64,000 nt of DNA from Rhizoctonia solani (taxonomy: Eukaryota > Basidiomycota > Agaricomycetes > Cantharellales > Ceratobasidiaceae). The DNA is taken from assembly GCF_016906535.1 (NCBI RefSeq), contig NC_057379.1, forward strand, positions 2,046,001 to 2,110,000, in the 5' to 3' direction. Position 1 is the first letter of the stretch. Each line of letters opens with the position of its first letter. The notes under the pieces were generated by a model. It did not search any database and had not been told where the DNA came from. It was given only the letters and a program-made list of their open reading frames with translations. This document shows positions 840-39,728 of the stretch, piece by piece. A program made the position numbers and the translations under genes.

Positions 840-907
840 GTTTAATGTACTCGAGTAAGTGTGTTATATATCTATCTATCTACAGTTGGTTATTGAGCGT
901 ACAATCG

Positions 908-3092: not shown

Positions 3093-3618
3093 TTGGTGAC
3101 CACCACAGGGCCTTGTGTTGGTTACATCTTTAATTCTTACCTGTGGTCTCTTATCACTTGTACTTAGTCTTACTGCTATAGTTGTACTAACACTGCATGT
3201 GGAAGCCTCCAGAACACTTGCACAGATTGTCTAGATCTGACCTAGGGCTTTGGACAACAAGGGAACATTGCTCTACAATGTCCAAACATGTGCCGTCAAC
3301 AAGCACTGCCTTGGATACCCTTCAGCCCACCACTCAACACCCTCTTACCCCCCCTAATCACTCTATTGACCTCAGCAACAGTACCAATGCTGCCAGGTTG
3401 CCTGATTCAACAATTTTGTTGTCAAGAACCCAGCAAGATGCTTGCAAACATGGTCCAATGACCAACTACTCCAAATCTACCCCTTCCACTTCCTCATCAG
3501 CTCAGCCCTGGTTGACAATGCTCCCTATACCAAGACACCCATTGCGCTACTTACCAGTCATGAACAACAATTGTACATACTTAGACACTGCTCTTAGGAT
3601 GCACTTAGATAAAAATAA
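3093..3618 (+). pseudogene. Family A giant ORF, segment 1 (start)
   Basis: After a leader of about 100 bp, an ATG at 3197 opens a frame rich in Ser, Thr, Pro, Asn and Leu with no recognised domain. It is cut at 3618 by a solo LTR (TSD AATAA, 3614-3618 and 16690-16694). Joined across the TSD it stays open in the same frame to 16911. The protein is unrecognised; position right behind the LTR suggests the N terminus of Gag. The choice of ATG is only the first in frame. Confidence 0.55.
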
Positions 3619-3883
3619 TGTTGTACACCACTGTAATGTGGGTACTTGCTAGTGGGAGGCAGGCACTTGTGGCCGTACTACTACACTGCTTATGTAATCT
3701 AACTAATCAAGGCTAACTACTGACTAACTCAGTTGCTTAAGGCAATGACCAACTATCTACTGTCAATGCGGAGGGGCCAGAGGCCTGGAGGTGTGGTGAG
3801 TGAAGTAAAGGGGGTAAGTGACTTCTGACTGCTGGGGGCCAGCTACTTAGCTGGCTGGATACCTTCTCTAATGGGTAAGAGAC

Positions 3884-4442
3884 TGTTACAACCTCCTTAC
3901 ATATACCATCAGAATCGGACGAATTTTCTATTATTTCTAGTATTTTTTACGGACTTGATATCTTATGTTTTTCGATCACGTGATCTCGGCGCTTATTATG
4001 CCGAGATACCGCGCCGAGTTGCCGTGCCAAGGGCGCTTGGGAGAAATCCACGCTTCTGCGCAGTCCGCAGCACGCTTCTCATTTCCCTTCTATACTTCTT
4101 TCTCTCACGCGCACAGACCATGTAGATAGTGTGCTTTGTCATATATACAGCAGGGAAATCGCTTGGAAACACCAGTCGATTTTACCTCGTCTCTTATTCA
4201 CTAGAGAAGGTAGCCAGCCAGCTAAGTAGCCGGCCCCCAGTAGTAACAGTAACACTCACCCCTTTACTTGACCTACCACACCTCCAGGCCTCAGGCCCCA
4301 TTGCCATCAGTAGTTAGTAGTAAGCCGCCTTAAGCGGTATTAGATAGCCTTAGATAAGTAGATTACATAAGCAGTGTCTGTAGTAGTTACGGCCTCAAGC
4401 GCCCACCACTAGCGAGTACCCACCTTACAGTGGTGTACGACA
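3884..4442 (+). repeat. 5' LTR of Ty3 copy 1
   Basis: 559 bp, TGTTACAACC...GTGTACGACA. It contains an ATCACGTGAT palindrome near 3975, then a hairpin of GATCTCGGCGC type, a TATA-like word near 4141, and at 4171-4185 the word complementary to the primer site behind the LTR, which is the likely 5' end of the transcript. Confidence 0.92.
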
Positions 4443-4461
4443 TTGTAAAATCAACTTGGTG
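4443..4461 (+). promoter_or_regulatory. Primer-binding site, apparently self-priming
   Basis: The bases after the LTR, GTAAAATCAACTTGGT (4445-4460), are the reverse complement of a word in the LTR about 30 nt below the TATA box, with one mismatch to ACCAAGTCGATTTTAC of the 3' LTR (the 5' LTR lacks one A). Tf1/sushi elements prime from the 5' end of their own RNA, so self-priming rather than tRNA priming is inferred. Confidence 0.6.
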
Positions 4462-4961
4462 TAGGCTTGATCAACAATGAGAAGCGCCCCTGTACTAGCA
4501 CGAGGGAAAACATCTGAACGGACTCCCCTTTCGACTAGAATAATCAAAAAGTCGTTGGTCCCAGATAGTACCAAATTGCTATAAGGCAGACGGTGTCTAA
4601 TCGCCCGCATAACACGAGTTTCGCCGGAACTCCGCAAGTAGCGCTCCTAGACAGCTGAAACACCCGCTTGCAAAAAACCCGCACATATCACAATTGCCAG
4701 ATCTGTTGATTTGCTGTAGGGATTGTCCAACGCTAGGTGCTTGACGCAAGGAGTTAGCAAATAACACCTTGCATAAAAACCGCTCATAAGTCCTGATACA
4801 GGCACCTTTATCCCCACGCCGTCTCAATCATTCCATCCACACGCTCTGGCGTCCCCCATCCCTACTCCCGTCCTACCAGCCGCTCCAGCCGCCGCTCCAT
4901 TCCATCCCATTCCCAACCACCCACTCGCAGCCCATCTCCCACTCTGCGAGACCTGCCAGGA

Positions 4962-6155
4962 ATGGAACCAGAGCCAACCCTTAGCGCTCTCCTCGAGGCT
5001 ATCACAGCCCTCACTGCCACTGTCGGGTCCTTGCAGGCCCAAATCACATCCCAAGGCCAACAGCTCATTGAGCTCAAAGCCATATGCAAGGAAACCGCCG
5101 ACCTCCTTGGGGATAAAGATCAAGGAGCACCACAAGCCCAGCCTGGCCCATCGACTGGGCCTGTCACTCCTCCCACCCACTCGGGAGGAGAAACCCACAC
5201 TCCAGGCACGGTTAGGCCTGGACTCAAGGCCCCATTCCGGCCTTCAAGAGGGACAGGCTTTGATTCAGAAGATGAGGAAGAGCAAAGGCCCCCCAAAAAG
5301 GAGCCTCAAGGAACGCCTAGGAGGCATCTAGGGTCTCTGACCCCCTTCGACGCAGGATCTAGCGCCAAGCGGCCCAAGATGGACCTCCCGGACCCTTACA
5401 AGGGCGATGTCAGGGGCCGCAAGGCCACCCAATGGCTGGACCGGATGCTTCTCTGGGTTGCCCTGCACAGGGAACAATTTGATGAAGAAGAGCAGATGGT
5501 TGTGTGGATTCTCTACCACATGACAGATAAGGCCGCCGATTGGGCGTTACCCCTCATAGGGACTATCATCAAGGGCGAGGGAAACCCTCCCACCACTATC
5601 CCGGCCTTAACGGCCAAATTCAAGGAGGCATTCGCAGACCCCGATGCCAAGAGAGCGGCTGCCAGGAAAATCGCCGCGCTAACTCAGTCCACAACCACGG
5701 CTGAGTATGTCACCGAGTTCCGTAACCTTATGGCGGAACTTGATTGGAACACTGAGGCGTTCATTGCCCAGTTCACACGCGGTCTTCACTGGAAGGTGAA
5801 GGAACTCCTGTCCACCAAGGACAACATTCCGGACGATGATCTTGAGGCCATATTTGCCGCCTCAATTAAAATTGACAATATCCGTCGGGAAAACGAGGAG
5901 AACCGCCCTAAAAAAGCTCCTGCCAAGGCCCCGGTTGCTACAACCACCTCTACCTCCACCACTACCACCAGGGTCCGCTTATCCGAGGACCCCAACTACG
6001 TTACCCCGGAGGAAAGAGATCGCCGCCGTGCGTCTGGCCTTTGCGTCAAGTGCGGTCAAAAGGGCCACGGGATCAAACAGTGCCCCAATGGCTGGAAAGC
6101 CACAATCAAGGAAGCCGCTAAGATAGGAGAAGTTCTTGAGTTGGAAAAAGAATAA
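4962..6155 (+). CDS. Ty3 copy 1 Gag
   Basis: 397 residues, structural capsid protein that packages the element RNA. Residues 1-60 are a heptad-like, possibly coiled segment (ALLEAITALTATVGSLQAQI); 60-125 is Pro/Gly-rich linker; about 130-300 is a retrotransposon Gag domain (WLDRMLLWVALHREQF, TAKFKEAFADPDAKRAA, YVTEFRNLMAELDW, FTRGLHWKVKELL). A CCHC knuckle CVKCGQKGHGIKQC is at 361-374. The ATG at 4962 matches the start of the homologous frame in copy 2. The stop (6153-6155) lies inside the open part of the pol frame, which begins at 6140, so Gag and Pol overlap in different frames. Confidence 0.93.
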   Translation: MEPEPTLSALLEAITALTATVGSLQAQITSQGQQLIELKAICKETADLLGDKDQGAPQAQPGPSTGPVTPPTHSGGETHTPGTVRPGLKAPFRPSRGTGFDSEDEEEQRPPKKEPQGTPRRHLGSLTPFDAGSSAKRPKMDLPDPYKGDVRGRKATQWLDRMLLWVALHREQFDEEEQMVVWILYHMTDKAADWALPLIGTIIKGEGNPPTTIPALTAKFKEAFADPDAKRAAARKIAALTQSTTTAEYVTEFRNLMAELDWNTEAFIAQFTRGLHWKVKELLSTKDNIPDDDLEAIFAASIKIDNIRRENEENRPKKAPAKAPVATTTSTSTTTTRVRLSEDPNYVTPEERDRRRASGLCVKCGQKGHGIKQCPNGWKATIKEAAKIGEVLELEKE

Positions 6156-6178
6156 AGCCAAGGACTGCCGTCAAGCCC

Positions 6179-9100
6179 TTGGTGACATCTATAGAAAAGC
6201 ATGTATCAGAATCAGTTGTCGAATTTGTCTCTATTGCTTGTGATTCAAATAAAAAACCACTGCTCTATCTTGACCTGGTCATGCAAAACTATCCGACGGA
6301 ACCTATCAAAACGTTAATTGATTCTGGCGCCACATCTAATTTCATCTCCCCCACCATTGTTGAAAAATTTAAAATCCCAAAAACCCTGCTCGAAAATCCA
6401 CGAGTAGTGAGAATGTTAGATGGTACCCTTTCCCAGACTGGTCGCATTTGGCACCAGGTTAATCTCGCGGTTTTGGCCAATGGCCACATCCACACTATTC
6501 CCTTCCTTGTCTGTCCCATTGGGAACACACCTGCCATACTTGGCATGACATGGCTCACTCAGGAGTCACCCTTGATCAATTGGTCCCTAGGCACGGTTAC
6601 CTTCCCAGAACAAGTTCAGATTGCATCCAAAGAAGAGGCAGATCCTAATCCCTTAGCCGATCTCCCGGAGCAGTACCATGAATTTGCTAAGGTCTTTGGC
6701 AAAGAAGAATTTAAGGTCCTCCCTCCACATAGGGAGTATGATATAGCTATAGACCTTGTTCCGGATGCCAAACTATCCCCAGGCCCCCTATATGGCATGA
6801 CTGATGCGGAATCAAAGGCGCTCAAGCAACACATTGACGAAGAACTAGCAACGGGCAAGATCCGCCCCAGTACTTCTTCTACCGGCGCCCCAGTCATGTT
6901 TGTAAAGAAGGCAGATGGATCCCTTAGACTGGTCGTGGACTACCAAAAACTCAATGATGTCACTCATAAGAACGTGTACCCACTCCCAAGACAGGATGAT
7001 CTGATGGCAAAGTTAAGACATGCCAAGATATTCACAAAACTGGACCTACGATGGGGCTACAACAACGTAAGGATCAAAGAAGGGGATGAATGGAAGACGG
7101 CTTTCAGGACTAAATACGGGCTGTTTGAGTATCTAGTAATGCCTTTTGGCCTCACCAACGCCCCGGCCGCCTTCCAGCATTTCATGAACGACCTGTTCAG
7201 GGACCTCATTGACGTAACGGTGGTCATTTACTTGGACAACATCCTCATCTTCTCAGAAAATCCAGAAGAACACCCGGCCCATGTCAAAGAAGTACTGTCC
7301 CGATTAATGAAGAACCAGCTGTTCTGCAAACTGTCGAAGTGTTTTTTCCACGTCACCACAGTCAATTACCTGGGCATCGTTATCTCCCCTGCCGGATTCT
7401 CCATGGATCAGAAGAAGATCGAGGCAGTTACATCGTGGCCTCAGCCCAAGACAGTCAAGCAGGTACAGGCATTCTTAGGGTTCGTGAATTACCTCCGCCG
7501 CTTTATCCCCAACTTCAGTTCCGTGGCACGCCCCCTCCACAACCTCACACAAAAGGAAACCCCCTGGTCATGGGGTAACCTAGAAGAAGTGGCATTCCGG
7601 GAACTGAAAGCCCTTGTCACCCGGTCACCGGTCTTAATCCATTCCAATCCCAAACTCCCATACTACCTAGAAACAGATGCATCAGGAGTAGCCATGGGAG
7701 CAATTCTTAGCCAGAGAGGAGAAGATAACCGTTTACACCCAGTAGCCTACATGTCTAAATCCTTCTCCGGTGCCGAGGCCAATTATGACACCCATGATAA
7801 GGAGCTCCTAGCCATAATCAAGGCATTAGAAGAATGGCGGATCTTCCTAGAGGCAACGGACAGACCAATCCAGGTGTTTACAGATCATAGAAACCTGGAA
7901 TATTGGATGCAGGCAAGGACTTTTAACCGACGGCATGCTAGATGGCGCATATTCCTGAGCGACTTCAATTTTGAAATACATTATCGCCCAGGGAAACAGT
8001 CAGGAAAACCCGACGCCCTTTCCAGAAGGTCGGACTACGTAGACTCCCCAGTAGAACCAGAAGTCATGCTACCGTCAGAAGTTTTTGCCAATACCTCAGA
8101 AGCAGAACTTGAGATCGTCACGGAAATCCTGAGCAAGTTAAAGGAGGACCCTTCCCTGGAACCCATCATCCAGTTCCTAACAGAAGACGCAGATAACGCA
8201 CCCCCCTCTATTCGGAAGGCCTATCGGGATTATGACTGGGAGGAGGACCTCCTATGGTATTGCGGGAAACTGGTTGTCCCAGACTCGGAAGCCCTGAAGG
8301 AACGTTTACTCAAAGAATTCCACGACTCACCCCTGGCAGGGCACCCTGGACAGCAAAGAACTCTGGAACTCCTGAGCCGCAACTACTGGTGGCCAGGAAT
8401 GAAGTCATCCGCCAAGGAATGGGTAGAATGCTGTCCCACCTGTCAGGCTAACCGTCGAGCCCACGCCCCGGTCATTGCCCTTAAACCTCTGGAAGTTCCC
8501 CCCTACCCTTTCCACACCATCTCCTATGACTTCATCACAGGTTTTCCAAAATCTAATGGTCACGACGCGATCTTGGTAGTTATCGACTCCTTTTCCAAAT
8601 TTGGACATTTCATCCCAACCACCAAGAAGGTTACGTCCAAGGGTCTAGCGGAATTGTTCATCTCTCATGTGTGGAAACTACATGGACTACCAGTCAAGAC
8701 AATATCAGACAGAGGAACTACGTTCACAGGGAAGTTCCTAAGGGCACTCTACCAACGCCTTGGTGTAAAACCATCCTTCTCATCAGCCTACCACCCGGAG
8801 TCAGATGGTCAAACAGAGAGGGTGAACCAGTTCATTGAGTTCTACCTGAGGTCATACGTTGCGGCAGATCACTCGGACTGGGCTTCCTGGTTGCCACTAG
8901 CGGAATACGCATATAACAACGCTAAACACTCCGCCACCGGGAAAACCCCATTTGAATTGGTATACGGGAGGAACCCAGTAATGAATCCGTCCAACGTCCC
9001 TGCGAACGTACCAGAAGCCGATCACGTGGCTAATACCTTGGCACAAGAATGGAAAGAAGCGGAATCTGCCCTGAGAATGACAAAGGAAAAAATGGCAGGA

Positions 9101-9571
9101 ACCAAGGGAGTGATCCCGGAATATTCCATTGGAGAAAAAGTCTGGCTAGACGCCAAGAACGTGGAGATACGTTCCAACTCCAACAAATTGGACCCCAAGC
9201 GCCTAGGACCCTTCAAGGTCACCGAGAAAATCTCCAGCCACGCGTACCGCCTGGAACTCCCTGAGACCATGAAAATCCATGACGTATTCTACGTAGGATT
9301 ACTGTCCAAAGTCCACGAATCCCCAAGCCAACCACTCCCAGAACAACCCCTTCCTGAAACAATAGAAGGGGAAGAAGAGTATGAAGTTGAACAAATCATT
9401 GACTCTAAACAACAAAAAGGGAAATGGTTTTATTTGATAAAATGGAAAGGTTACGGTCCGGAAGACAATTCATGGGAGCCGGAAGAACTACTGGAACACA
9501 GTCAAGAAGAGATCAAACGCTTCAACCAAGCTAGACTCAGAAAGGCTCGTGACGCCGCCAAGAGCCTTTAA
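6179..9571 (+). CDS. Ty3 copy 1 Pol (protease-RT-RNase H-integrase-chromodomain)
   Basis: About 1130 residues, open throughout. Aspartic protease DSGA at 48-51; RT fingers/palm with LDLRWGYNNVRI and MPFGLTNAPAAF; RNase H YLETDASG; integrase zinc region HPGQQRTLELL...CCPTCQ, then DDE core residues in YDFITGFPK, ISDRGTTF and SDGQTERVNQ; chromodomain near the end (FYLIKWKGYGPEDNSWEP). The RT catalytic box is YLDN at 351-354 (GAC AAC at 7235-7240) where copy 2 has YLDD (GAC GAT), a G-to-A change expected to kill RT activity. No ATG opens the frame: it is open from 6140 and the first codon of the listed range is TTG. Copy 2 has an ATG at the matching place, so copy 1 would need frameshifting from Gag or has lost its start. 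Confidence 0.93.
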   Translation: MVTSIEKHVSESVVEFVSIACDSNKKPLLYLDLVMQNYPTEPIKTLIDSGATSNFISPTIVEKFKIPKTLLENPRVVRMLDGTLSQTGRIWHQVNLAVLANGHIHTIPFLVCPIGNTPAILGMTWLTQESPLINWSLGTVTFPEQVQIASKEEADPNPLADLPEQYHEFAKVFGKEEFKVLPPHREYDIAIDLVPDAKLSPGPLYGMTDAESKALKQHIDEELATGKIRPSTSSTGAPVMFVKKADGSLRLVVDYQKLNDVTHKNVYPLPRQDDLMAKLRHAKIFTKLDLRWGYNNVRIKEGDEWKTAFRTKYGLFEYLVMPFGLTNAPAAFQHFMNDLFRDLIDVTVVIYLDNILIFSENPEEHPAHVKEVLSRLMKNQLFCKLSKCFFHVTTVNYLGIVISPAGFSMDQKKIEAVTSWPQPKTVKQVQAFLGFVNYLRRFIPNFSSVARPLHNLTQKETPWSWGNLEEVAFRELKALVTRSPVLIHSNPKLPYYLETDASGVAMGAILSQRGEDNRLHPVAYMSKSFSGAEANYDTHDKELLAIIKALEEWRIFLEATDRPIQVFTDHRNLEYWMQARTFNRRHARWRIFLSDFNFEIHYRPGKQSGKPDALSRRSDYVDSPVEPEVMLPSEVFANTSEAELEIVTEILSKLKEDPSLEPIIQFLTEDADNAPPSIRKAYRDYDWEEDLLWYCGKLVVPDSEALKERLLKEFHDSPLAGHPGQQRTLELLSRNYWWPGMKSSAKEWVECCPTCQANRRAHAPVIALKPLEVPPYPFHTISYDFITGFPKSNGHDAILVVIDSFSKFGHFIPTTKKVTSKGLAELFISHVWKLHGLPVKTISDRGTTFTGKFLRALYQRLGVKPSFSSAYHPESDGQTERVNQFIEFYLRSYVAADHSDWASWLPLAEYAYNNAKHSATGKTPFELVYGRNPVMNPSNVPANVPEADHVANTLAQEWKEAESALRMTKEKMAGTKGVIPEYSIGEKVWLDAKNVEIRSNSNKLDPKRLGPFKVTEKISSHAYRLELPETMKIHDVFYVGLLSKVHESPSQPLPEQPLPETIEGEEEYEVEQIIDSKQQKGKWFYLIKWKGYGPEDNSWEPEELLEHSQEEIKRFNQARLRKARDAAKSL

Positions 9572-9581
9572 GGGGGGGCAA
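9570..9581 (+). promoter_or_regulatory. Polypurine tract
   Basis: TAAGGGGGGGCA lies between the pol stop and the 3' LTR, the usual plus-strand primer site. Copy 2 has the equivalent G8 tract at 10726-10740 on the minus strand. Confidence 0.75.
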
Positions 9582-10139
9582 TGTTACAACCTCCTTACAT
9601 ATACCATCAGAATCGGACGAATTTTCTATTATTTCTAGTATTTTTACGGACTTGATATCTTATGTTTTTCGATCACGTGATCTCGGCGCTTATTATGCCG
9701 AGATACCGCGCCAAGTTGCCGTGCCAAGGGCGCTTGGGAGAAATCCACGCTTCTGCGCAGTCCGCAGCACGCTTCTCATTTCCCTTCTATACTTCTTTCT
9801 CTCACGCGCACAGACCATGTAGATAGTGTGCTTTGTCTATATACAGCAGGGAAATTGCTTGGAAACACCAAGTCGATTTTACCTCGTCTCTTATTCACTA
9901 GAGAAGGTAGCCAGCCAGCTAAGTAGCCGGCCCCCAGTAGTAACAGTAACACTCACCCCTTTACTTGACCTACCACACCTCCAGGCCTCAGGCCCCATTG
10001 CCATCAGTAGTTAGTAGTAAGCCGCCTTAAGCGGTATTAGATAGCCTTAGATAAGTAGATTACATAAGCAGTGTCTGTAGTAGTTACGGCCTCAAGCGCC
10101 CACCACTAGCAAGTACCCACCTTACAGTGGTGTACGACA
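9582..10139 (+). repeat. 3' LTR of Ty3 copy 1
   Basis: 558 bp, nearly identical by eye to the 5' LTR with a few indels (one T fewer in a T-run near 9645, one extra A near 9869). It is followed by the TSD GAGAC at 10140-10144. Confidence 0.92.
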
Positions 10140-10171
10140 GAGACAAGGTAAAATCAACTTGGGGTCTCCAA

Positions 10172-10725
10172 TGTTGTACACCACGGTAATGTGGGTACAC
10201 GCTGGGGGGGGGCGCTTAAGGCCGTACTACTACAAGCTTATGTAATCTAACTTAACTAGGCTATACTACGGCCGCTGTAAGGCGGACTTCTACTGGCTAT
10301 CTACTGCGAAGGGGCCTGAGGCCTGGGAGGTGTGGTGAGTTAAGTAATGGGGGTGACTTCTGGAAACAACTGGGCCGGCTACTTAGCTGGCTGACTAATC
10401 CCTCCTCAATGGATACGAGACAAGGTAAAATTGACTTGGAGACTCCAAGCGATTTCCCTGCTGTATATATAGACTAAGCACACTATCTACATGGTCTGTG
10501 CGCGTGGGAGAAAGTACAGAGGACAAATGAGAAGCGTGCTGCGGGCTGCGCAGAAGCGTGGATTTCTCCTAAGCGCCCTTGGCACGGCATCTCGGCGCGG
10601 CATCTCGGCATAATAAGCGCCGAGATCACGTGATCGAAAAACATGAGATAATCAGTTCGTAAAAAATACTAAAAATAATAGAAAAAATAGGCGAATCCAG
10701 TGGTATAATTTAGGAGGTTATAACA
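10172..10725 (-). repeat. 3' LTR of Ty3 copy 2
   Basis: 554 bp, reads TGTTATAACC...GTGTACAACA on the minus strand. It abuts the G-rich polypurine tract. Confidence 0.9.
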
Positions 10726-10736
10726 TTGCCCCCCCC

Positions 10737-13700
10737 TTAAAGGCTCTTGGCGGAGTCACGAGCCTTTTTCAGTCGCAACTTGTTGAAGCGTTGGATCTCC
10801 TCTTGACTATGCTCCAGGAGTTCCTCGGGTTCCCATGAATTGTCTTCTGGACCGTAACCTTTCCATTTTATCAGGTAGAACACTTTCCTCGTTGACGTTT
10901 TTGAGTCAATGATCTTTTCCACTTCTACTATTCCTCCCCTTCTATGTTTCAGGGGGAGGGGTCGTTCTGGGAATGGCTGACTTGGTGATCGGGCTCTTTG
11001 ATAGCAGCCAACATAAAAGACGTCATGGATTTTCAGGGTCTCTGGGAGCTCTAGGCGGTAGGCGTGACTGGAGATTTTCTCAAGGATTTTGAAGGGACCA
11101 AGACGTTTGGGGTCCAATTTGTTGGAATTAGTCCTGAGTTCTACGTTCTTTCCATCCAGCCAGACTTTCTCTCCTATCGAGTACTCCGGTACTGTTCCTT
11201 GGTTCCTGGTCATCCGTTCTTTGCTTAATCTGAGAGCTGACTCGGCTTCCTTCCATTCCCGTGCTAGTGTGTCTGCTACATCGTCTGCCTCTGGAACGTT
11301 GGCTGGGACGTTGGAGGGGTTCATCACTGGGCTTTGTCCGTAGACCAGTTCAAAGGGTGTTTTTCCTGTTGCTGCGTGTTTGGCATTATTGTACGCATAT
11401 TCTGCCAAAGGTAACCAAGCCGCCCAATCAGAGTGATTGGTGCAACGTAGGAACGTAGGTAAAACTCGATGAACTGGTTGACTCTTTCCGTTTGCCCATC
11501 TGACTCTGGGTGATAAGCCGAAGAGAATGCTGGTTTTACTCCAAGTCGCTGGTAAAGTGCCCTTAGGAATTTCCCTGTGAAGGTAGTTCCTCTATCCAAG
11601 ACTGTTTTGACAGGTAGTCCATGGAGTTTCCAGACGTGGGTAATGAATAGATCCGCCAGACCCCTTGCTGTGACCTTCTTGGAAGTGGGGATGAAATGGC
11701 CAAATTTGGAGAAGGAGTCTATTACCACCAGTATGGCGTCGTGTCCTTGGGACTTGGGAAACCCTGTAATGAAGTCATAAGAGATGGTGTGGGAACGGAT
11801 AAGGGGGGACTTCTAGGGGTTTAAGGGCGATGACAGGAGCATGAGCGCGTCGGTTGGCTTGGCAGATAGGGCAACATTCTACCCATTCCTTGGCTGTAGA
11901 CTTCATGCCAGGCCACCAATAGTTACGACTTAGGAGTTCGAGGGTTCTTTGCTGACCCGGGTGTCCTGCTAGGGGGGAGTCATGGAATTCCCTGAGGAGT
12001 CTTTCTTTCAGGGGTTCATTGTCTGGAACCACCAGTTTCCCCCGATACCACAGGAGATCCTCTTCCCAATTGTAGTCTCTGTAAGCTTTTCTTATTGATG
12101 GTGGAGCGTTATTGGCATCTTTGGTCAGGAATTGGATGATGGGCTCTAGGGAGGGGTCTTCCCTCAGTTTAGAGCGTACTTCTGTAACAATTTCCAGCTC
12201 TTCCTCTGATGTGTTTGCAAAGACCTCTGATGGTAGCATGACTTCTGGTTCTTGGGGGGTGTCCACATAGTCCGATCGTCTGGACAAGGCGTCGGCTTGC
12301 CTGATTGTTTTCCTGGGCGATAATGTATCTCAAAAATTGAAGTTGCTCAGGAATACGCGCCATCTAGCATGCCGTTGATTGAATGTCCTTGCCTGCATCC
12401 AGTACTCAAGGTTGCGGTGATCTGTAAATACCTGAACTGGCTTGTCTGTAGCTTCCAGGAAAATACGCCATTCCTCCAGGGCTTTGATGATGGCTAGGAG
12501 TTCCTTGTCATGAGTGTCGTAGTTTCCTTCTGCCCCTGAGAATGATTTAGACATGTACGCGATTGGATGCAACCGGTTATCTGGGCCCCGCTGACTAAGA
12601 ATGGCTCCCATGGCTACCCCTGAGGCGTCGGTCTCAAGATAATAGGGGAGTTCTGGGTTGGAATGGATGAGAACCGGCGACTTGGTAACAAGAACCTTCA
12701 ACTCCTGAAATGCTGCTTCTCTAGGTCGCCCCATGACCAAGGGGTTTCCTTTCTGGTGAGGTTGTGCAGAGGGCGTGCTACTGAGCTGAAATTGGGGATG
12801 AACCGTCGGAGGTAGTTAACAAAGCCCAAGAAGGCCTGGACCTGTTTGACCGTTCTGGGTTGAGGCCATGATGTAACTGCCTCTACCTTCTTCTGATCCA
12901 TGGAGAAGCCTGATGGGGATATAACAATACCAAGATAATTGACCGTGGTGACGTGGAAATGGCACTTGGACAGTTTACAGAATAGCTGGTTCTTCATTAA
13001 CCGAGACAGAACTTCCCTGACATGGGTAGGGTGATCCTTAGGGTTTTCTGAGAAAATCAGGATATCGTCCAAGTAAATGACCACTGTGACGTCAATAAGA
13101 TCCCGGAATAGGTCGTTCATGAAATGTTGGAAGGCGGCCGGGGCATTAGTGAGACCAAAAGGCATAACTAGATATTCGAATAGCCCATATTTAGTCCTGA
13201 AAGCCGTCTTCCATTCATCTCCTTCCTTGATCCTGACGTTATTATATCCCCAGCGTAAGTCCAATTTCGTGAAGATCTTTGCGTGCCTAAGCTTGGCCAT
13301 CAAGTCGTCTTGCCTAGGGAGTGGGTATACGTTCTTGTGCGTGACGTCATTCAACTTCCTGTAATCAACGACTAGTCGGAGGGACCCATCAGCCTTCTTC
13401 ACAAACATGACCGGGGCGCCTGCTGAGGAGGTACTAGGGCGGATTTTGCCCGTTGCTAATTCCTCATCAATATGCTGTTTTAGCGCCTTTGATTCTGCGT
13501 CGGTCATGCCGTATATGGGGCCAGGAGACAGTTTGGCATCCGGGACAAGGTCAATAGAGATGTCATACTCCCTATGTGGAGGGAGGACCTTAAATTCTTC
13601 TTCGCCAAAAACCTTAGCAAACTCATGGTACTGAGGGGGGAGGTCTGCTAAGGGGTCTGAGTCTGCTTCTTCCTCGGAGGCAATTTGAGCCTGTTCAGGG

Positions 13701-28971: not shown

Positions 28972-29140
28972 GGTTATGAGCCCCAATTGAACACTTATAA
29001 CCAACTGTAAATAGATTATATAAACCACTTACCCAAGTATACTCAAACACAATAAGAAATGGCTGAGAAAACATCAACCATTACTGGTGCAAGCGGATTG
29101 CACCAAATCCCATCCCTCCAGGGAACTGAGAATTACAACA

Positions 29141-31216
29141 TGTTGTACACCACTGTAAGGTGGGTACATGCTAGTGGGAGCAGGCGCTTAAGGCCGCACT
29201 ACTACAGGCAACTTATGTAATCTACTGTACTAGGCTATACTACTACCGCATAAGTTGGCTGTTATGGATATGACATTTCTTCTTTAATCTGTACTTATTT
29301 TAATTACACTAGTAATCTTACAGTAAACAAATGAGATAAAGACGCGAACTAAGGTCTTCAAGGTCCCTCTATCTAATAATGACCTTTACAAAACCTACAA
29401 ACCTCAGGAATACCCTCAATATGCAATACCTTTTGCATATATGCTGTTTTCTCACTCATTTAAATATATATAAATTCAGCTGAGTAGATAAACAGTAACA
29501 AGTAATATTTCTCTTGTTTGTAGTATTTATTATTCAAGATTCTATCTTGTGGCTACACACAGAAATATTCAGGGTCCCCCCTGTCGCATAGGCAAGTGCT
29601 CCGGCGCTTAATCAGCCCTTAAGCGCCGACGCACTAAATGCGCCTTTTCTCCATCACCCGGGCACCCCACACTGCCGAATTGCTTGCGCTTAGGTGCGCA
29701 TGTTTGTGCGCTCCAGAACGCTGGGTCAAACTCCCAAAACGGACAACATTTGGTAGAGTTATGCCCCATTTACTGTAAGTACCCAATGCAGAGGTATCCT
29801 ACCTTTGGGACTGTTTACTCCAAGGATGAAACACTTAGCCTTGGGACATCTAAGGACCCACACAAGTAAATACTGCCTTGGGGCAAACATTGCCTTGGGG
29901 CAAATATTAGGATTTGTTGTTTGTTTACTATGTACCAAAGTATTGGCTCCCTCAAGTGTTTCAGTTGCCACATGTACCTCCTGTACCCCCTCTTGGTACC
30001 AATCATGTATATACTTGTTTGCGCGCCTTCTCAGGGTATAAAAGGACCCTGTGAAGACGCTTCTAATGCATCCTACTTTTACTCTTATATATTGACATAT
30101 ACACAAGCTTTTAACAGCTTATCTGCGCATTTACTTTAGTGATTGACTCACTGTAAATAGCATAGGAGGTTATTCGGCGCACTAAGACCATAGGCCAGTC
30201 CCAACAGACACAGGGTAACCTATTAGTGTACTTACTGCAACCCTGTGCCCCTTGACTGTCACAGTTGTTGAGTTCAACATTGAGTATAGTGCAACAATAC
30301 TGTAAGGATTGTTGTGATTGAGTGTGTTTCAATCCACCATACCCCCTATATTGTAGATAGCTTTATCTACAATATCTCATAAATCCTAGATATATTTTAG
30401 GTAAACCCCATAAGTCTTAAGTCTTACTTAAGCATATATAAGTCCTATACTTATTAGGCAAATCCTATAAATCCTGTACATTAGTCAGGTAACCCTTTTA
30501 CTTAAGGTACTATCCCAGAGACCTTAAGTATACATACCCTTAGTCACTTAGGCTTAAGTAACATTAGTCTAAGGTACTATATATAACCAACCACCTGCAC
30601 TTCATAGTTGCTAGACTATTTGTTAGGAGTTGTTATTCCTGATAACCTAGCCTATATTGTGCATATATTCTGTGCATATATTCTGATTCTTACTACTAGT
30701 TCTTAGTTATTCCCATATACATTTTGTATATAGTAATTCTTTCTTACTCCTGTACTTACACGACTCTTAACATTGGCCTACTACTATCTACTAGCAATGG
30801 GGGCCTGAGGCCTGGGAGGTGTGGTGAGTGCGGTATGGGGGTTAACATTTAAGAACTGATGGGGGCTGGCTACTCAGCTGGCTGGGTGATCCTCCTCAAT
30901 GAATATGAGACAAGGTAAAATTGACTTGGGATCTCCAAGCAATTTTCCTTCTGTATATAGACAAGGGCACACTATCTACATGGTCTGTGCGTGTGAGAAA
31001 GGAAGTACATAAGACAAATAAGAAGTGTGCTGCAGGCTGCGTAGAAGCGTGGATTTCTTCTAAGCGCCCTTGGCACGGCAACTTGGCGTGGCATCTTGGC
31101 ATGGTAAGCGCCAAGATCACGTGATTTAAAAAGTACAGATAACAAGTTCGTAAAAAATAGTAAAAATATTAGAAAAAATAGGTGAATCCAATGGTATAAA
31201 TAAGGAGGTTGTAACA
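29141..31216 (-). mobile_element. Family-1 solo LTR, split by a family D LTR
   Basis: TGTTGTACACC...TTGTAACA with the TSD CAACA (29136-29140, 31217-31221); pieces 29141-29259 and 30773-31216. Confidence 0.88.
29260..30772 (+). mobile_element. Family D LTR
   Basis: 1513 bp, uninterrupted reference copy of the family, TSD TTGGC (29255-29259, 30773-30777). TATA box GTATAAAAGG near 30037. Confidence 0.88.
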
Positions 31217-31783
31217 CAACACATGGCGTATACAGATGAAAGACCCAAACCTAAGATAAAAATCAGGGTTACTGGTTGCAAAGACAACAATGGAAATAAC
31301 TTACCCAATCTTGAAGTAGGCAATGATGATTCTGCATACACAGAATGGATCAGAGCCAATTGTAAAGCACTGTCAAATATTAGATTAAGGGTTGAAGGGA
31401 ATGTACTTACACACATACAATCATGTAAGTACTCTGCCAATGCTTGGAATCTCTTGGCAGAAACATTTCAAGTTAAGGGTAGATTAATTGACTTACAAAT
31501 AAAGTTCTTCAGCCACAGGATGTTGGACAACAAAGACATTGAGGAACACATATAATGTATGCGTGGATGGTTCCAACAAATCAATGACATTGCACCAAAC
31601 CTGTGCACTGAAGCCAATTGGATAACCACATTAGTAGCAAGCCTACCTGACTCATGGGACACATTCACCCAGTCTGTAAGCTTTGAAATTGACACTGAAG
31701 ACAAGAATAAATTAGCCAATCAAGTGAGTGACTTACGCTCACGTATTATGGCCAAAGCACACCAAAGAACCACCCAATAACCT

Positions 31784-32634
31784 GACAGTAAGACTTTCTT
31801 TGCTACAAATAAACCAAGCTTCAATAAGTTCATACATACCAATATGAGTAATGAAGGCCCAGATAAGTGTAAATTGAAATGCAATAACTGCGGAAAGATT
31901 GGACACTGGGCAGCTGAATGCCAAGGTCCAGGTGGAGGCGTATTCAAGCCAAATCATCCAAATAAAGGCAGTCAACCAAACAGAAGATTCAATGCACCAG
32001 GAAAAGCTAGGAATGGCAATGCCCACATGCATATAGCCATATCTAATAACTCCAAACATAAAGAATATGTGTTCTTGATGCTTGAGGATGAAATAAGCCT
32101 GATAGGTAAGACCCCCAACACCTGGATAGTGGATAGCAGCACTACTATTCACATAGCAATTGATTGTAATGCATTCTTGGATTATACCAAGTCATCCAGC
32201 TACATTGCTGGAGTCACTGGCAAAGAGCCAATCATGGGCCAAGGCACTGTAGAGCTATTGTGCTTAAATAATAGAGAGAAGAACAAATACACAAAGATTA
32301 GGCTCACCAATGTAGCTCACATGCCAAGTTTGCCTGCAAACCTAATCAGCTTATCATTAGTAACTGATAAAGGCACTAGAATTCTGATGGATCAGAATGA
32401 ATTGCAAATACTGGATAAAAACAATAGGCCAATCATTATTGGATCAAAGTTGAAAAATTGCAAACAAGGAAACCTTTGGAAGATCAGTGTGAAAGCCATG
32501 AATGATTGCAATCAGAAGCTTGAGAACAATAAACTTACTGAAATAGTACTGACCAAACAAACCAGACACACATGATTTGAATGGCACAAGGTACTTGGGC
32601 ACATTGGCCTGCAAGCACTCCAACTGTCATAACC
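31784..32634 (+). pseudogene. copia gag end, protease and pre-integrase region
   Basis: A complete CCHC knuckle CNNCGKIGHWAAEC is encoded near 31878-31919. The aspartic-protease region reads TWIVDSSTTIHIA; the usual motif is DSGA, here changed. The frame ends with TGA at 32572; beyond it FEWHKVLGHIGLQALQ is the conserved pre-integrase WH-x3-GH block, cut by the family C insertion. Confidence 0.85.
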
Positions 32635-33061
32635 CATATCTGGAAAGGTTATTACCATATATATCCACTGTCAAAGATATATATAGTATATGTGATGCAC
32701 AGTGATATATGAATAATATATATTGCTGGGGGACATTGCACTCCCCCACCCCCTAGCTGCAGGCCAATGTTAAGGGAGCCTGTGGGCAAGGTCTGAATAT
32801 TATATTATTATAGAAGAGATTATGTCATCCCCCCCCCCCACCTCAAATCCGTAGTAGTTTAGTATAGTATTTGATAAAGGACTGGAGGGGGGGAGGTCAT
32901 GTGACCCTGGTGGACTGTCAGTCTCTAAGTCATGAGCCCTTAGAGTAATGACAGTTCTGGCTGCATATATGTGAGTATATGCGGCCTTCTAAAGACTGTG
33001 GAAATCCTATTAGTAGGTGGCTTGGTCAGGAGACATACCAGCAAAGGCATGGGTCATGACA
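32635..33061 (+). mobile_element. Family C solo LTR-like element
   Basis: 427 bp, TGTCATAACCC...GGGTCATGACA, TSD CCAAC (32630-32634, 33062-33066). C-runs and G-runs near 32830 and 32890 flank a central segment. Confidence 0.82.
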
Positions 33062-34274
33062 CCAACAACTAAAATCCAATGAAGCAATCAGCAGAATGGA
33101 GGTAATAGAAGACAATATTGGACTCAACTTTGAATGCAATGTATGTATGCAGTCAAAGGCACACACCCAACTGTTTCCAAAAGAATTGCAAACCAAAGTG
33201 TCTGAAATCAGCAAATTGATTGTTACCAATGTGTGGAGACCCGCTTGAACTACATCTATAGGACAATACAGATATTATGTATCATTTACTGACATTGTAA
33301 CTAGATTTAATTGCTTAGGAATTCTCAAACATAAAGATGAAACTCTGAACAAGTATAAAGCATTCAAAGCAATGGTAAATACACAGAAAGATAAAAAGAT
33401 AAAGCAAGTACGCTTTGACAATGGTTGCAAATTTATAAATAAAGATTGGATTGAGCACACTAACCTGACAGGTACAATTTTAGAAACCACAGCCCCATAC
33501 TCAGGCAACAAAATGGTATTGCTGAAAGGTTAAATTGCACATTAGCAGATAAAGCATGTGCAATGCTACTTGAATTGGGTGCACCAAAGTTCCTTTGGAA
33601 CAAAGCAATTGCATATGCCTGTTACCTGAAAAATCAAGTACCAACACAAGTGCAAGGAAAGTTCTGGAAAATGCTGTTCAAAGTGTTATGGGGTCAGAGA
33701 CCTGATGTAAGTGTACTGCAACCATGGGGAACAAAATGCTACAGTGGTGCAAGTCACCTCTCATTGGGTGGACCCTAGCTCAAGGCAAGCTGACCAAGCA
33801 AGGCTGGCAGGGCAGGAATTTGACCATTCAACACGCCTTGACAAGAAGAACCAGAATTTGCAATAATATTTTTTTTGGTCCTCAAGGTCCTTGTTCCAAT
33901 TGTGGTTTTGGTCACTTATACATACCTAGTCCCATCCAAACACTGTTTTTTGTTGATTGTCTTTCTCAATGCATTTGAAAATACAAAGCAAAGCAGCAAA
34001 GGATTGCAAGTGGCTGAAAAGACAACACATAGACCCATGTAATACTGCAAGCAATGGTAGCCAATATGCTCCCTTGAGCAGAGAGAGCACCAACAACAGC
34101 AGCAATGCTGCAATAGGGGACAAAGTGTGCTCCCACACCCAAAGTTGGAAATGGACCAAGATACTCTGTGTGGGCTTGGAGAGTTGGAATTGGATGATAT
34201 TAGTGAAAGCAACAGGGAAATAATGGCGCTATATGGATGCACATAGGAAGGGGTTGACTGGTGTGATGGCCAAA
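33062..34274 (+). pseudogene. copia integrase relic
   Basis: Encodes CNVCMQSKAH (zinc region), TDIVTRF, VRFDNGCKF (normally TDNG) and, in another frame, LELGAPKFLWNKAIAYACYLKN, the copia integrase core. Frame changes occur near 33250, 33530 and 33770. After about 33800 only weak coding remains before the family A LTR. No RT follows. Confidence 0.8.
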
Positions 34275-36118
34275 TGTTATAGAGTAGGGTTTTAGAGACT
34301 ATGTAATTAAGTGCAGAATACAATAAAGTGATTAATGGATCAATTATATATGGATATAAAAGGCAATAGACTACCTATATAAGGGTAAATTAGGTTAGTA
34401 ATCAGGGTGATCCCTACACTTAACAAGTAATCAAGCGATTACTGTAGATGCAGGTGGTTGGTTATGCTTATACCTATAGTATGAAAGTTAGTACTGAGTC
34501 TTATCTACGTACTGTAATTTATCTGGATTTTTTAGCAATTTATTTGACTGAGATCGCACTAAAATAAAGTGTATATGCCGCTTTCAAGGCCTTAAACTCT
34601 CCCAACTGACTTACTCAAGAGGTTCAGGGTCGCCCTAGAGCCTTTCCTAGCTACCCAGTATCTGTTGGGACCTTGCTAGAGGCTATATGCGCCAAGAGGC
34701 CTTACAGGTTAAGTTCAGTGAGCTTAAGAGGCTAAGAAAGCAAAATAAGACACTCTAAACTAGGTAAAGAAGAGCTAATAGATCTTCAAGTTCACACAAG
34801 GGGTAAGAATGGGATTAAAAGAAAGTTGTTATCAAAGGGTCTCCCTCAGGAGCTTTATATACCCCAGAGGGAGAACAAATAACTATATACATGATGTACA
34901 AAAGAGGAAGTTACATGAGAGGTACAGTCTGAGCTATTTGATACATAAAGACCAATTAGTCCCAATAAGTCCTAGTGGGATAGACTCAAGGCTATTTACA
35001 GAATGCTCTAGAGCATACATGACTAAATTACATAAGTGTGAATGCTAAAAATAACCTTGAGGCAAGGTAGGATCTCATATAAAAAGCTAGAAACTTAAAT
35101 AGTTAGTATCTCCATCAATTTGGCTCAGTATCAGACAATTCCTTTTTGGGAACTGAGATGCCAGAGCCTCCAACCTATTGGTATTTGTTGGCATAGTAAT
35201 ATGCCTATTTCCTGCCAACCTTTGGCGCTTATTTGCAATGACTAAGCGCCAGCACTTGCATGCTTACTTGCACTTGTTCTATGGTCTGTAAGTACTGTTC
35301 CTATGTTATAACCTCCTAACATATACCACTGGAATTGCCTCTTTTTTCTGATATTTCTACTATTTTTTACGGACCTGATATCTTATGTTTTTCAATCACG
35401 TGATCTCGGCGCTTATTATGCCAAGATGCCACGCCAAGATGCCGTGCCAAGGGCGCTTAGGAGGAATCCATGCTTCTGCTCAGCCTGCAGCATGCTTCTC
35501 TTTTCACATGGACACTTCTTTCTTCCACGCACAGACCATGTATATACCTGTACCAGTGTCTATATAAACAGCAGGAAAATTGCTTGGAGACCCCAAGTCA
35601 ATTTTACCTTGTCTCATATTCATTGAGGAGGATACATCCAGCCAGCCAAGTAGCTGGCCCCCAGTAGTTAGAACCCTTACTCCTTATTGCACTCACCACA
35701 CCTCCAGGCCTAAGGCCCCCTTGCCATCAACACCCAGTAGTAGACTGCCTTAAGTGGTGTTAGCATAGCCTAGATTAGTTAGTTAGATAAGCACTGTCTG
35801 TAGTAGTACGGCTGTAAGCGCCTGCCCACTAGCAAGTACCCACCTTACAGTGGTGTACAACATCCTACATATGAATGTATGATACAAAAAATGCTATAAA
35901 TCACAGAAATAATTGTATGACCATTTTGCATGATCAGACGTGTATAGATGCAAGCACAATGAGGAAATAAAGGATAAAAGGTCTCATAGCACTGCCAGTT
36001 TCCAAATATAGTAATGTTCATGCCCATATTTGGATAGAGCAAGTATGATTACTCCTGTTTGCACTATTCACTATTGGCAATTAGGGGCGCATATGTCTAA
36101 ATTAGTCATTCCATAACA
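34275..36118 (-). mobile_element. Family A LTR, inverted copy, split by a family-1 LTR
   Basis: Same LTR as 1786-3092 (about 1280 bp without the insert). No matching duplication at its ends (CCAAA versus CTCAC), and it joins directly to a truncated copia LTR, so deletion or recombination accompanied or followed its arrival. Its frame 34809-35048 mirrors 2319-2558 because the DNA is repeated; it is not a gene. Confidence 0.82.
35304..35862 (+). mobile_element. Family-1 solo LTR
   Basis: 559 bp inside the inverted family A LTR, TSD TCCTA (35299-35303, 35863-35867). TGTTATAACC...GTGTACAACA. Confidence 0.92.
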
Positions 36119-36207
36119 CTCACCTCTCTTTTCTCTTTATTCACACTACTGTCTTTACTATTGTTTTGTATTCATATAGTTCTATTTACAATCTTATTCT
36201 TTCTACA
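36119..36207 (+). repeat. 3' LTR remnant of the copia element
   Basis: The last 89 bp match the end of the 5' LTR (28883-28971) essentially base for base, ending TTTCTACA, followed by the TSD AATCA. Confidence 0.85.
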
Positions 36208-36874
36208 AATCAAATCAAAGCTCTGACAAAGATCAACCTCAACAAAGGACAAGGAACAATCCTCCAGATCCACCTAACAAATCAGGAGATGAGTATAGTG
36301 ACTTACCTATAAGGAATCCTATATGCGCACAATCTTTCAGACCTAAGCCCATGCACTTTGATCCTAAACTTGAGCCTGAAAACATTACAGAATGGAATGG
36401 CAATACTAGCAAATTACCCAGATGGATCATGACCATTAATAATTTAGCTGAATATAGTATTTATGCACATATACAGTTAAGACAACAAGTGCCATTGAGA
36501 CTTACAGGTCAAGTGCTAAGATGGTTTAATGCACTAGATAAGACTTATTGACAAATCATCACTGCCAATTAGCTGAGTTTAAGACATGCAATAACAATAC
36601 ACTTCATGAATCAATTGCTGATATACAGTAATGAGGCCAAAGCTCTTCAAGCCAGATTCAGAGACAGAGATAACCCGTATGAAACACCAGTAGACTACAT
36701 TGTTTGGAAGGCCAAAATGCTTACCCTATTTAGCAATTGGACCAACTTGGAACTAATTATGGAGATCATGAACAGCACTCCTGAACACTGGTCATTGTAT
36801 ATAGATACATCTGTAGTAACTACATGGGACAACTTCTCAGACAAAGTTGCATGGCATGAAGATTGCTTGCTAAG
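36208..36874 (+). pseudogene. Family A ORF, segment 8: Ty3-type Gag domain
   Basis: Reads in frame from 28725 once the copia is removed. It carries the Gag core typical of basidiomycete Ty3 elements: WNGNTSKLPRWI, LRLTGQVLRWFNALD, AITIHFMN, RFRDRDNPYETPVDYI, LIMEIMNSTPEHW. Two in-frame stops, TGA at 36549 and TAG at 36570, fit Arg (CGA) and Trp (TGG) at those places. This identifies the giant relic as Gag of an LTR retroelement. It is cut by a family-1 LTR (TSD CTAAG). Confidence 0.75.
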
Positions 36875-37446
36875 TGTTGTACACCACTGTAAGGTGGGTA
36901 TGCGCTGGTGAAGGCGGGCGCTTGTGGCTGTACTACTACACTGGCTTATGTAATCTACTATCTAAGGCTAACTAATAATCTAACTAAGTTGCTTATGGCA
37001 ACAACTAACTATCTATTGCCAATGTGGAGGGGCCTTAGGCCTGGAGGTGTGGTAAGTGAGATAAAGGGGTTAACGGCTACTGAACTACTAAGGGGCCAGC
37101 TACTTAGCTGGCTGGAGATCCTCCTCAATGGTAAGAGACAAGGTAAAATTGACTTGGGGTCTCCAAGCAATTTCCCTGCTGTATATATAGACAAAGGCGC
37201 ACTATATACATGGTCTGTGCACATGAGAAAAGAAGTACATATAACAAATGAGAAGCATGCTGCAGGCTGCACAGAAGCGTGGATTTCTCCTAAGTGCCCT
37301 TGGCACGGCATCTTGGCGCGGTATCTTGGCATAATAAGCGCCGAGATCACGTGATTGAAAAACATGAGATAATCAGTTCGGAAAAAATAGTACAAATATC
37401 AGAAAATTCAGGCGGATCTGGTGGTATAAATAAGGAGGTTATAACA
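36875..37446 (-). mobile_element. Family-1 solo LTR
   Basis: 572 bp, TSD CTAAG (36870-36874, 37447-37451), minus orientation. Confidence 0.9.
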
Positions 37447-37950
37447 CTAAGACAAGATAATAATATATCTGAGAACATGCAAAAGCAGCTCAACAAAATG
37501 AGAGGAATTCTAGCAAACATTGAGACACAATGGGATTTTAAAGTCAAAACAGACCACTCCAGTCAAGGGGATTACAAAGAGTTAAGCAACAACAAGAATA
37601 TAAGTAACAACAAGTCTGAAATCAACAAAAAGGCCTCTACTCAAGACTCCTACCAAACCCATCAATCCTTCACAGCATTAGTGTGCCCATGCACTCCCAA
37701 TCCAATACCAGCTAGAAAGTCAATCAAAGAAGACATTGTTAGTCAACAGAGTTTGGACTGGAGGTCCAGCTATGAGCAATTAACAATAAAATTAGCTAAA
37801 CTGAATCAGCAATTGAATGAACCATTAACACCACAAACATTGCCTGCTAGTACACATACAAACAAGCCAAGACAAACAGCATATAGAACAGGCAAGTATT
37901 GCCCAGCAAGTTCTCAAAGGTTTAAGTGGTTTGAGGGGAATCAACACTTC
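37447..37950 (+). pseudogene. Family A ORF, segment 9
   Basis: In frame with segment 8 across CTAAG. Open throughout, polar and Asn/Lys/Gln-rich (ISENMQKQLNKMRGILANIE), resembling a linker or coiled segment after the Gag core. No zinc knuckle is seen. Confidence 0.6.
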
Positions 37951-38521
37951 TGTTGTAGACACACTCAATACCAGGGAATTTATTCCCATTTTTCTCAAAT
38001 TTAAACAAAGATAAACAGACAATATTTTCAATCACGTGACTTTGGTGCTTATATCATATGCTAAGCACCAAGCCACGTCCCCATCCGCGCTTAATCAGCA
38101 TACGTAGCCACCTCCACCTATGACGTCATCATGACATGTCAGTGACATGTATGCATGAGTAAGGCCAACTGCGGAGCGGGGTTCTTATTGGATTAGGTAT
38201 TGGATAACATGTATTTGTAATTAGTTGATCTGTAGAAATATAAGGAGGACAACCAACCATGGAAACACCCAGGTTGATTACCTCTTGTTGAATCCCCCAC
38301 TTGTACAAGGCCTTACAGCCAGATCACTAAGTAGCCTACAACGCCTTAAGCGTCAACTCAACTGTACATACGTAGCTAGCCATTGCCCTTAAGGCCTTGG
38401 TCACCGTAGTTTAGTAATTAAATGTTGTAGGGTAGAACTTGCCGCCTTAAGCAGTACTATTGTATTATCCACACGGCCACAAGCGCCCGCGCCCTCAATG
38501 TCCTTACAGATGTCTAGGACA
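37951..38521 (+). mobile_element. Family F solo LTR
   Basis: 571 bp, TSD ACTTC (37946-37950, 38522-38526). Confidence 0.88.
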
Positions 38522-39728
38522 ACTTCCTTCTGAATTCAGTCCTTTCCACATCCAAGCAAAGAGACAATGTGCCTGGGGGGGATACAAGGGATTGAGAATT
38601 CAACACAGAAACAACTGGATTGAAAAAGCAAAATCTTATGCATCAATCAGAGAATCCTAAGGAAGTAATAGCTAACAAAGCTCAAGAATATAGGCATTGG
38701 TCAGAAATCACTTGGAAAATAGTAAAGTACATTGCTGCAAAGCACATTGCCCCTGCTTGGACCAAAGAATCACATTCAGCCACACAAATTGAAGCAACCA
38801 AGCAACCAGTTGATCACACCACAGCTAGTCCATCTACTATAGACAGCTATCAGCAATCAACAAGAGCTTTGAAACACATAGGAAATAAGCAACATAGTTA
38901 TATGCAAGGATCAACAACTCAGCATTTAATCAGTCAAACTAACCAAAGGATCTTATTGAACAATTCTGCTTGGAATAACTTTAGCTGCACTGGAAAATCA
39001 CAAGTACTTACAAACTGTATCATAAGGCAAACACATGTGCAACAGAATAAACAGAATCTGCCTGTCAACAATCAACAGAATGGTTGTAGATATGTAGACC
39101 CCCAACACCCAGTAAATAGAACACACAAGTATACATTGGGACAAAACCCAGCAGCCAGAGCAAGGGCAGAAATGTTTATAGAGCCATCCAGAATTATCAG
39201 GAAAGAGATCCATACAAATTTCAATGCTTTAGCCAGTGCCAACACATTCAGACAACCAAATAAAGCAGTACAATGGCTTTCACACAAGAAATGCGGTCAG
39301 TTGAAATTGGACAAACTGGAAACTCCCTCAGAGCATATACATCAGCCCCTGCCTGTTGTCTGGAAAGAATATACAGACACTTTGGTGCAGGATATCAGCC
39401 TGGTAAACCTGGATTCACACAGAACAGCTTACATGCATAACCACTTACATCCAGAGAAGACACAACAACCCTGGACAAGCTGAGGTATCTGTTAGGACAA
39501 CATACCATTATGGAATCAATAGTCACTCCATGTTCAGATATCATTAAAGCGCCTCTGTATAAACTCAGTAGGCATTCTAGTAGATCTCAGCAAGACCTAA
39601 TGATCAAGCAATGGTCTAAGAGCTTGGCAGAAATGTTAAGGGAACAAGAATACATGAAACTAGGAGATAAATGCACCTACCAGTACCCCATTCAATGGCT
39701 GGGACGCAACTTAAGTAGCAAACCAAAG
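38522..39728 (+). pseudogene. Family A ORF, segment 10 (last seen)
   Basis: In frame with segment 9 across ACTTC. Stops TGA at 38593 and TGA at 39481; after the latter another frame is open to the family C unit (SDIIKAPLYKLSRHSSRSQQD, QWSKSLAEMLREQEYMKLG). No known domain. The element is lost at 39729, where a family C unit and then a D fragment follow. Confidence 0.55.

What the first reader, a model, noticed from the sequence alone, without database searches (positions are those of the whole stretch)
3093..39728. A giant interrupted ORF: ten segments over 36 kb rejoin into one Gag-type reading frame
Using only TSD borders, I removed each inserted element and checked the reading frame. The frame is continuous across the junctions AATAA, GACAA, GAATG, GGTAC, CAGAG, AACAA, AATCA, CTAAG and ACTTC. 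The relic has about 2800 codons: roughly 2200 of low-complexity, apparently novel N-terminal protein, then a Ty3-type Gag core. A Gag of this size is far beyond the usual 300-500 residues. Keeping the frame over nine independent junctions is very unlikely by chance. This is my best candidate for an undescribed system: a family of LTR elements with a giant Gag extension.
Basis: partly seen in the sequence, partly recalled or inferred. Interest (0 to 1): 0.9.

Follow-up and report, generated by a model that had tools for sequence, protein, structure and literature searches.

The report
Giant Gag-only fungal LTR retrotransposon
The broken pieces in this stretch are an old copy of a fungal mobile element that carries almost nothing but one enormous capsid-type protein gene; copies with an unbroken gene sit elsewhere in the same genome, and they probably move by borrowing enzymes from close relatives.

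Summary
The window (Rhizoctonia solani genome) carries a shattered relic of one very long reading frame, and the proof needs no joining: contig C13 of the same genome holds an uninterrupted 2820-codon frame that aligns in order with every relic segment. The C13 copy is a complete LTR element: identical 1307-bp LTRs, 5-bp target duplication, primer-binding site, purine tract, and no pol detected. A second copy (C12) also has identical LTRs, and its 2552-codon frame lacks 804 nt in frame. The protein has a conserved N-terminal module, a ~1275-residue linker, a capsid core whose predicted fold best matches Arc C-lobes, and a tail with one short trace of lost pol. Single-frame gag-pol relatives in the same genome share the module, core, LTR 3' half, PBS and leader. 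Best explanation: a recently mobile, non-autonomous Gag-only (TR-GAG-like) Ty3-type element, mobilised in trans by gag-pol cousins. The gigantism and loss of pol are specific. New variant of a known kind; translation, movement in trans and any role of the linker are inferred.

The parts
1786..3092 (+). 5' LTR of the relic (1307 bp), 93.3% identical to the C13 LTR
   Evidence: 87 mismatches, no gaps, of 1307
3093..3190 (+). leader with primer-binding site (TTGGTGACCACC...)
3191..3618 (+). relic segment 1: N-terminus of the giant frame (ATG is codon 3)
   Evidence: TSD AATAA 3614-3618
16690..17241 (+). relic segment 2; internal frame change near 16.8 kb
   Evidence: TSDs AATAA / GACAA
17662..17756 (+). 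relic segment 3
   Evidence: TSDs GACAA / GAATG
18753..18921 (+). relic segment 4
   Evidence: TSDs GAATG / GGTAC
22536..23419 (+). relic segment 5: conserved N-terminal module ('KYLPY' module), 82% to C13, 2 in-frame stops
23980..24117 (+). relic segment 6 (start of linker)
   Evidence: TSDs CAGAG / AACAA
24698..26219 (+). relic segment 7: linker; internal frame change near 25.9 kb
26220..26439 (.).
26440..28725 (+). relic segment 8: linker, 69% to C13, 3 stops
36208..36874 (+). relic segment 9: end of linker and most of the Gag (capsid) core
36573..36911 (+). open piece (last 12 codons lie in the next insert) whose model matches Arc C-lobes
37447..37950 (+). relic segment 10: end of core and start of tail
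   Evidence: TSDs CTAAG / ACTTC
38522..39728 (+). relic segment 11: C-terminal tail; frame change near 39.47 kb; homology to C13 stops at 39728 where another LTR-like repeat begins
3619..16689 (.). insert 1, 13,071 bp: holds two gag-pol elements on opposite strands (chromovirus label by eye)
17242..17661 (.). insert 2, 420 bp
17757..18752 (.). insert 3, 996 bp
18922..22535 (.). insert 4, 3614 bp
23420..23979 (.). insert 5, 560 bp
24118..24697 (.). insert 6, 580 bp
28726..36207 (.). composite insert; includes a minus-strand copy of the giant element's LTR (34.27-36.12 kb, itself interrupted)
36875..37446 (.). insert, 572 bp, TSD CTAAG
37951..38521 (.). insert, 571 bp, TSD ACTTC

Best explanation
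A non-autonomous, Gag-only LTR retrotransposon of the Ty3 type with a giant Gag. A pol-bearing ancestor lost its pol domains by deletion, kept its LTRs, PBS, leader and Gag frame, and the linker between the conserved N-terminal module and the capsid core came to be about three times as long as in the cousins. Its RNA is translated into a Gag of roughly 2,550-2,820 residues. Through its capsid core that Gag joins particles of single-frame gag-pol cousins in the same genome, which supply protease, reverse transcriptase and integrase in trans and recognise the shared leader, PBS and LTR signals. The window copy is an old insertion later hit by ten other insertions. SHOWN: anatomy, copies with an open frame, recent insertion, no detectable pol, shared cis signals, one pol trace. 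INFERRED: translation, co-assembly, mobilisation in trans.
Against: No autonomous element with the same whole LTR was found: the LTR 5' half does not match the cousins. Only 2 of about 8 independent loci have a fully open frame. Amino-acid change is close to neutral (N/S 2.00 vs 2.37, P 0.12 for C13-C12). dN/dS is 0.29 in the module but 0.58-0.64 in the linker, 0.81 in the core (only 6 and 2 changes) and 2.2 in the tail (8 and 1 changes). C13 and C12 were noticed because they are open, which biases the stop test. The pol trace in the giant itself is one short stretch. The fold model has mean pLDDT 65, and helical folds match easily. No transcript or protein evidence was available.
Confidence: 0.78

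Rival explanations
1. The giant element is a passive deletion derivative: only its cis signals matter, and the long frame is open merely because the copies are young.
For: Near-neutral N/S; several copies broken; identical LTRs mean little time since insertion.
Against: C13 and C12 differ by 279 substitutions in the frame with no stop (11.3 expected) and only an in-frame indel, so openness was kept along the source lineages. P0001 in another R. solani record (four blocks at 79-89%) and P0004 in Ceratobasidium also keep long frames, as gene models.
Confidence: 0.2
2. The giant Gag acts as an interfering or hijacking capsid that poisons or captures cousins' particles rather than simply riding in them.
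For: Shared core, module and leader; the C13 copy inserted inside a cousin's RT gene.
Against: No functional data; insertion into a cousin is expected in TE-rich DNA.
Confidence: 0.1
3. Chance juxtaposition of unrelated segments.
For: None found.
Against: Collinear uninterrupted frame on C13 and long collinear copies on C12, C2 and C11.
Confidence: 0.01

Closest known systems
TR-GAG (terminal-repeat retrotransposons with GAG domain), described in plants
   Same: Two LTRs, one frame encoding Gag, no pol, a gag-pol relative in the genome, recent movement (passages of PMC8704663).
   Different: The Arabidopsis TR-GAG there encodes a 562-aa Gag; here the frame is 2552-2820 codons in an element of up to 11.6 kb in a basidiomycete, with a long linker and a pol trace. 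That TR-GAGs were defined as small plant elements is recalled, not read.
Single-frame Ty3-type gag-pol elements of R. solani (P0002, P0005, P0006, P0007)
   Same: Conserved N-terminal module and capsid core; in the C4, C5 and C13 cousins also PBS, leader and parts of the LTR 3' half.
   Different: They carry RT and RNase H, most also integrase-type domains, P0005 and P0007 a chromodomain; their linker is ~365-410 residues against ~1275.
Ogre and Burro giant LTR retrotransposons
   Same: Large Ty3-type elements with extra coding sequence (passages of PMC6431247).
   Different: In those passages the size comes from long LTRs, extra ORFs or added domains, with pol kept (Burro has PR and RT); here Gag itself is enlarged and pol is absent.
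Arc (domesticated Ty3-type Gag; origin recalled)
   Same: Predicted fold of the core.
   Different: Host gene without LTRs (recalled); here a mobile element.

Membership tests
LTR retrotransposon | Paired LTRs with TG...CA ends and a 5-bp TSD | tested here: met
   C13 AAAGC and C12 CTCAC, LTRs identical; C2 CTGGG
LTR retrotransposon | PBS next to the 5' LTR and purine tract before the 3' LTR | tested here: met
   the priming tRNA was not assigned
Ty3-type Gag | Capsid core homologous to Gag of pol-bearing Ty3-type elements | tested here: met
   58-66% to cores lying in frames whose relatives carry RT and RNase H
Ty3-type Gag | Capsid fold | tested here: inconclusive
Ty3-type Gag | CCHC zinc knuckle (common, not universal; recalled, so supporting rather than defining) | tested here: not met
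   no C-x2-C-x4-H-x4-C in the C13 frame; the C13 cousin has one, sub-threshold in Pfam
TR-GAG | Single frame with Gag, no pol domains, between two LTRs | tested here: met
TR-GAG | Related autonomous gag-pol element in the genome | tested here: met
   gag-pol relatives exist, but only part of the LTR is shared; that they are active was not tested
TR-GAG | Small element (recalled, up to about 4 kb) | tested here: not met
   C13 element 11,638 bp; hence filed as TR-GAG-like, not as a member
TR-GAG | Transposition in trans | not testable with these tools
   identical LTRs show recent insertion only

The most novel reading that the evidence does not exclude
The frame is kept open for the act of translation or for sheer length rather than for its amino-acid sequence: a giant, nearly sequence-neutral Gag linker that, while being translated, protects the RNA or tethers it to its own Gag (cis packaging), letting a pol-less element out-compete its parents for their particles.
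Probability: 0.15. Interest if true: 0.75.

Novelty: new variant of a known kind. Interest (0 to 1): 0.5.

Why it matters
It shows that a pol-less retroelement can keep, and insert recently with, a Gag frame several times the usual size. That makes a concrete case for asking what Gag must do for a parasite of a parasite: coat protein, RNA retention, or interference. It also gives a defined family, with recent copies and cousins in one genome, in which selection on an open frame can be separated from selection on sequence. Public records of such frames are named hypothetical proteins (P0001, P0009, P0011), so it also helps correct gene sets.

Tried and rejected
Chance mosaic: rejected by the uninterrupted C13 frame. 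Autonomous member with the same LTR: not found; the two exact LTR-end + PBS matches outside the giants (C4, C5) belong to cousins whose LTRs match only in the 3' half. The pattern (up to 3 mismatches) gave 43 matches, its reversed control 14. The C5 LTR hit is a solo LTR (TSD TAGTG) inside a cousin. Self-priming: no reverse complement of 7 or more PBS bases in the LTR. Solved-structure sequence search: nothing credible for core or module. AlphaFold model of the module (P0008): mean pLDDT 39.9, not used further. FoldIndex: linker slightly positive (0.06), so disorder is not supported by it. A plain Foldseek search could not be started. Relatives outside Rhizoctonia and Ceratobasidium: none in three protein searches, whose reach is limited to shared words and similar length. 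Papers: PMC8704663, PMC6431247 and PMC7884421 were seen only as passages; all others only as search listings. In those listings and passages I saw no report of a giant Gag-only element in fungi.

Full report
WHAT WAS CHECKED. The window is C10:2046001-2110000 of a 40.7-Mb, 16-contig genome. So it is R. solani, most likely strain XN, whose chromosome-scale assembly is described in PMC7884421 (passages seen).

The relic has 10 in-frame stops and three internal frame changes, so it is dead.

THE DECISIVE RESULT. The same genome has an uninterrupted frame of 2820 codons at C13:51673-60132. tblastn of it against the window gives 14 pieces at E<=1e-5, all collinear, from 3194 to 39728. Nothing had to be joined. 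Other copies keep the same order: C12 (all but 268 codons), C2 (317-324 kb), C2 (975-985 kb), C11 (1.86 Mb), and in part C3 and C11 (0.39 Mb) (some only partly fetched). Two further places are duplicates: C7 of the window relic (100% over 4208 bp) and C11 (2.04 Mb) of the C13 locus (same flank and TSD). That makes about eight independent loci, of which two have a fully open frame.

ANATOMY. The C13 element runs from 50268 to 61905 (11,638 bp): LTRs of 1307 bp with no difference, TSD AAAGC, PBS TTGGTGACCACCG, a G-run just before the 3' LTR, and an open frame starting 98 bp after the 5' LTR. It sits inside the RT gene of a cousin gag-pol element, whose frame stops at its left side and resumes at RVT_1 position 58 on its right. 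C12: LTRs identical, TSD CTCAC, frame of 2552 codons, with an 804-nt in-frame deletion at an 8-base repeat. C2 (314-326 kb): TSD CTGGG, 2 LTR mismatches and 16 gap columns. C13 and C12 differ by 11 of 1307 in the LTR; in the frame they differ by 3-37 per 300 nt over the first ~4.2 kb compared and by 0-5 per 300 nt over the last ~3.5 kb, which looks like recombination between templates (inference). The LTR search listed 41 rows: 40 of 1.2-1.3 kb at 91-100% and one short one (40 of 137 candidates scored, so a lower bound). Of eight exact LTR-end + PBS junctions, six belong to giant copies and two to cousins.

RELATIVES. A genome-wide core search gave 45 rows: giant copies at 80-100% (plus two short end pieces at 60%), then relatives at 51-67% and one at 24%; six of those relatives lie in open frames of 2827 codons. 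Database relatives P0002, P0005, P0006 and P0007 carry pol domains in the same frame (precomputed Pfam; P0002 and P0005 rescanned). They share module and core with the giant. The stretch between module and core is ~365-410 residues in them against ~1275. PBS, leader and LTR 3' half are shared with the C4 and C5 cousins; the C13 cousin's LTR matches in two shorter pieces and its leader at 80 of 121. P0001 (another R. solani record) matches the giant at 79-89% in four blocks; P0004 (Ceratobasidium sp. 423, partial, ~960 residues between module and core) looks giant-type. P0004 keeps collinear traces of the protease, RNase H and integrase-end regions, and the giant keeps the RNase H-region motif. 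So the giant Gag most likely descends from a gag-pol frame that lost pol. In the core tree P0004 does not group with the R. solani giants (single FastTree run), so whether the large linker arose once is open.

SELECTION. NG86 dN/dS between C13 and C12 is 0.57 overall: 0.68 N-terminus, 0.29 module, 0.64 and 0.58 in the two linker halves, 0.81 core and 2.17 tail, the last two on 8 and 9 changes. Against a neutral simulation using the LTR substitution spectrum, N/S is only slightly low (C12 2.00 vs 2.37, P 0.12; C2 2.02 vs 2.34, P 0.18; C11 1.85 vs 2.38, P 0.03), while stops are missing (0 vs 11.3 expected for C12; 0 vs 9.8 for the open part of C2; 1 vs 7.7 for the open part of C11, where the 1 is a single-change count in an open frame). 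The stretches were chosen for being open, so the stop result is suggestive, not proof.

MECHANISM. Most likely (0.78): a pol-less, TR-GAG-like element whose giant Gag joins particles made by gag-pol cousins. Shown: anatomy, recent insertions, shared signals, no detectable pol. Inferred: translation, co-assembly, trans mobilisation.

NOVELTY. Gag-only LTR elements are known from plants, with evidence of movement (PMC8704663, passages). In nine paper searches (listings, with passages of three papers) I saw no report of one with a Gag of this size, or of one in fungi. The kind is known; the variant appears new.

Noticed in passing
C10:2014-2083 kb (includes window 1786-37446) and C7:2195-2264 kb: The relic region is duplicated near the end of another contig: 100% over 4208 bp, with LTR and core hits at a near-constant offset. 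A large, recent duplication, or an assembly effect.
   Followed up: partly
C11:2038-2050 kb versus C13:50-62 kb: Same element, same TSD and flank on two contigs; the first 1089 codons are identical, then several frame breaks at 92-100% identity. Possible segmental duplication or consensus errors.
   Followed up: partly
window 26220-26439: 220-bp CACTG...CAGTG repeat with 3-bp TSD and about 30 other listed copies, mostly 94-97%: looks like a CACTA-type MITE (label recalled).
   Followed up: partly
window 52876-53603 and 54563-55094: Two arrays of 56-bp tandem repeats in inverted orientation to each other, about 1 kb apart.
   Followed up: no
window 3619-16689: Two gag-pol elements in opposite orientation (chromovirus label by eye); the 4.8-9.6 kb one has frames of 452 and 1143 codons and flanking repeats 98.9% identical over 560 bp.
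   Followed up: no
L037 4218-5513 (C5:1717218-1718513): Solo LTR of the giant family (TSD TAGTG) inserted in the N-terminal part of a cousin gag-pol frame.
   Followed up: yes
window 3-863 (-) and 31154-32575 (+): Copia-like Gag frames (CCHC 'CNNCGKIGHWAAEC' type, by eye).
   Followed up: no
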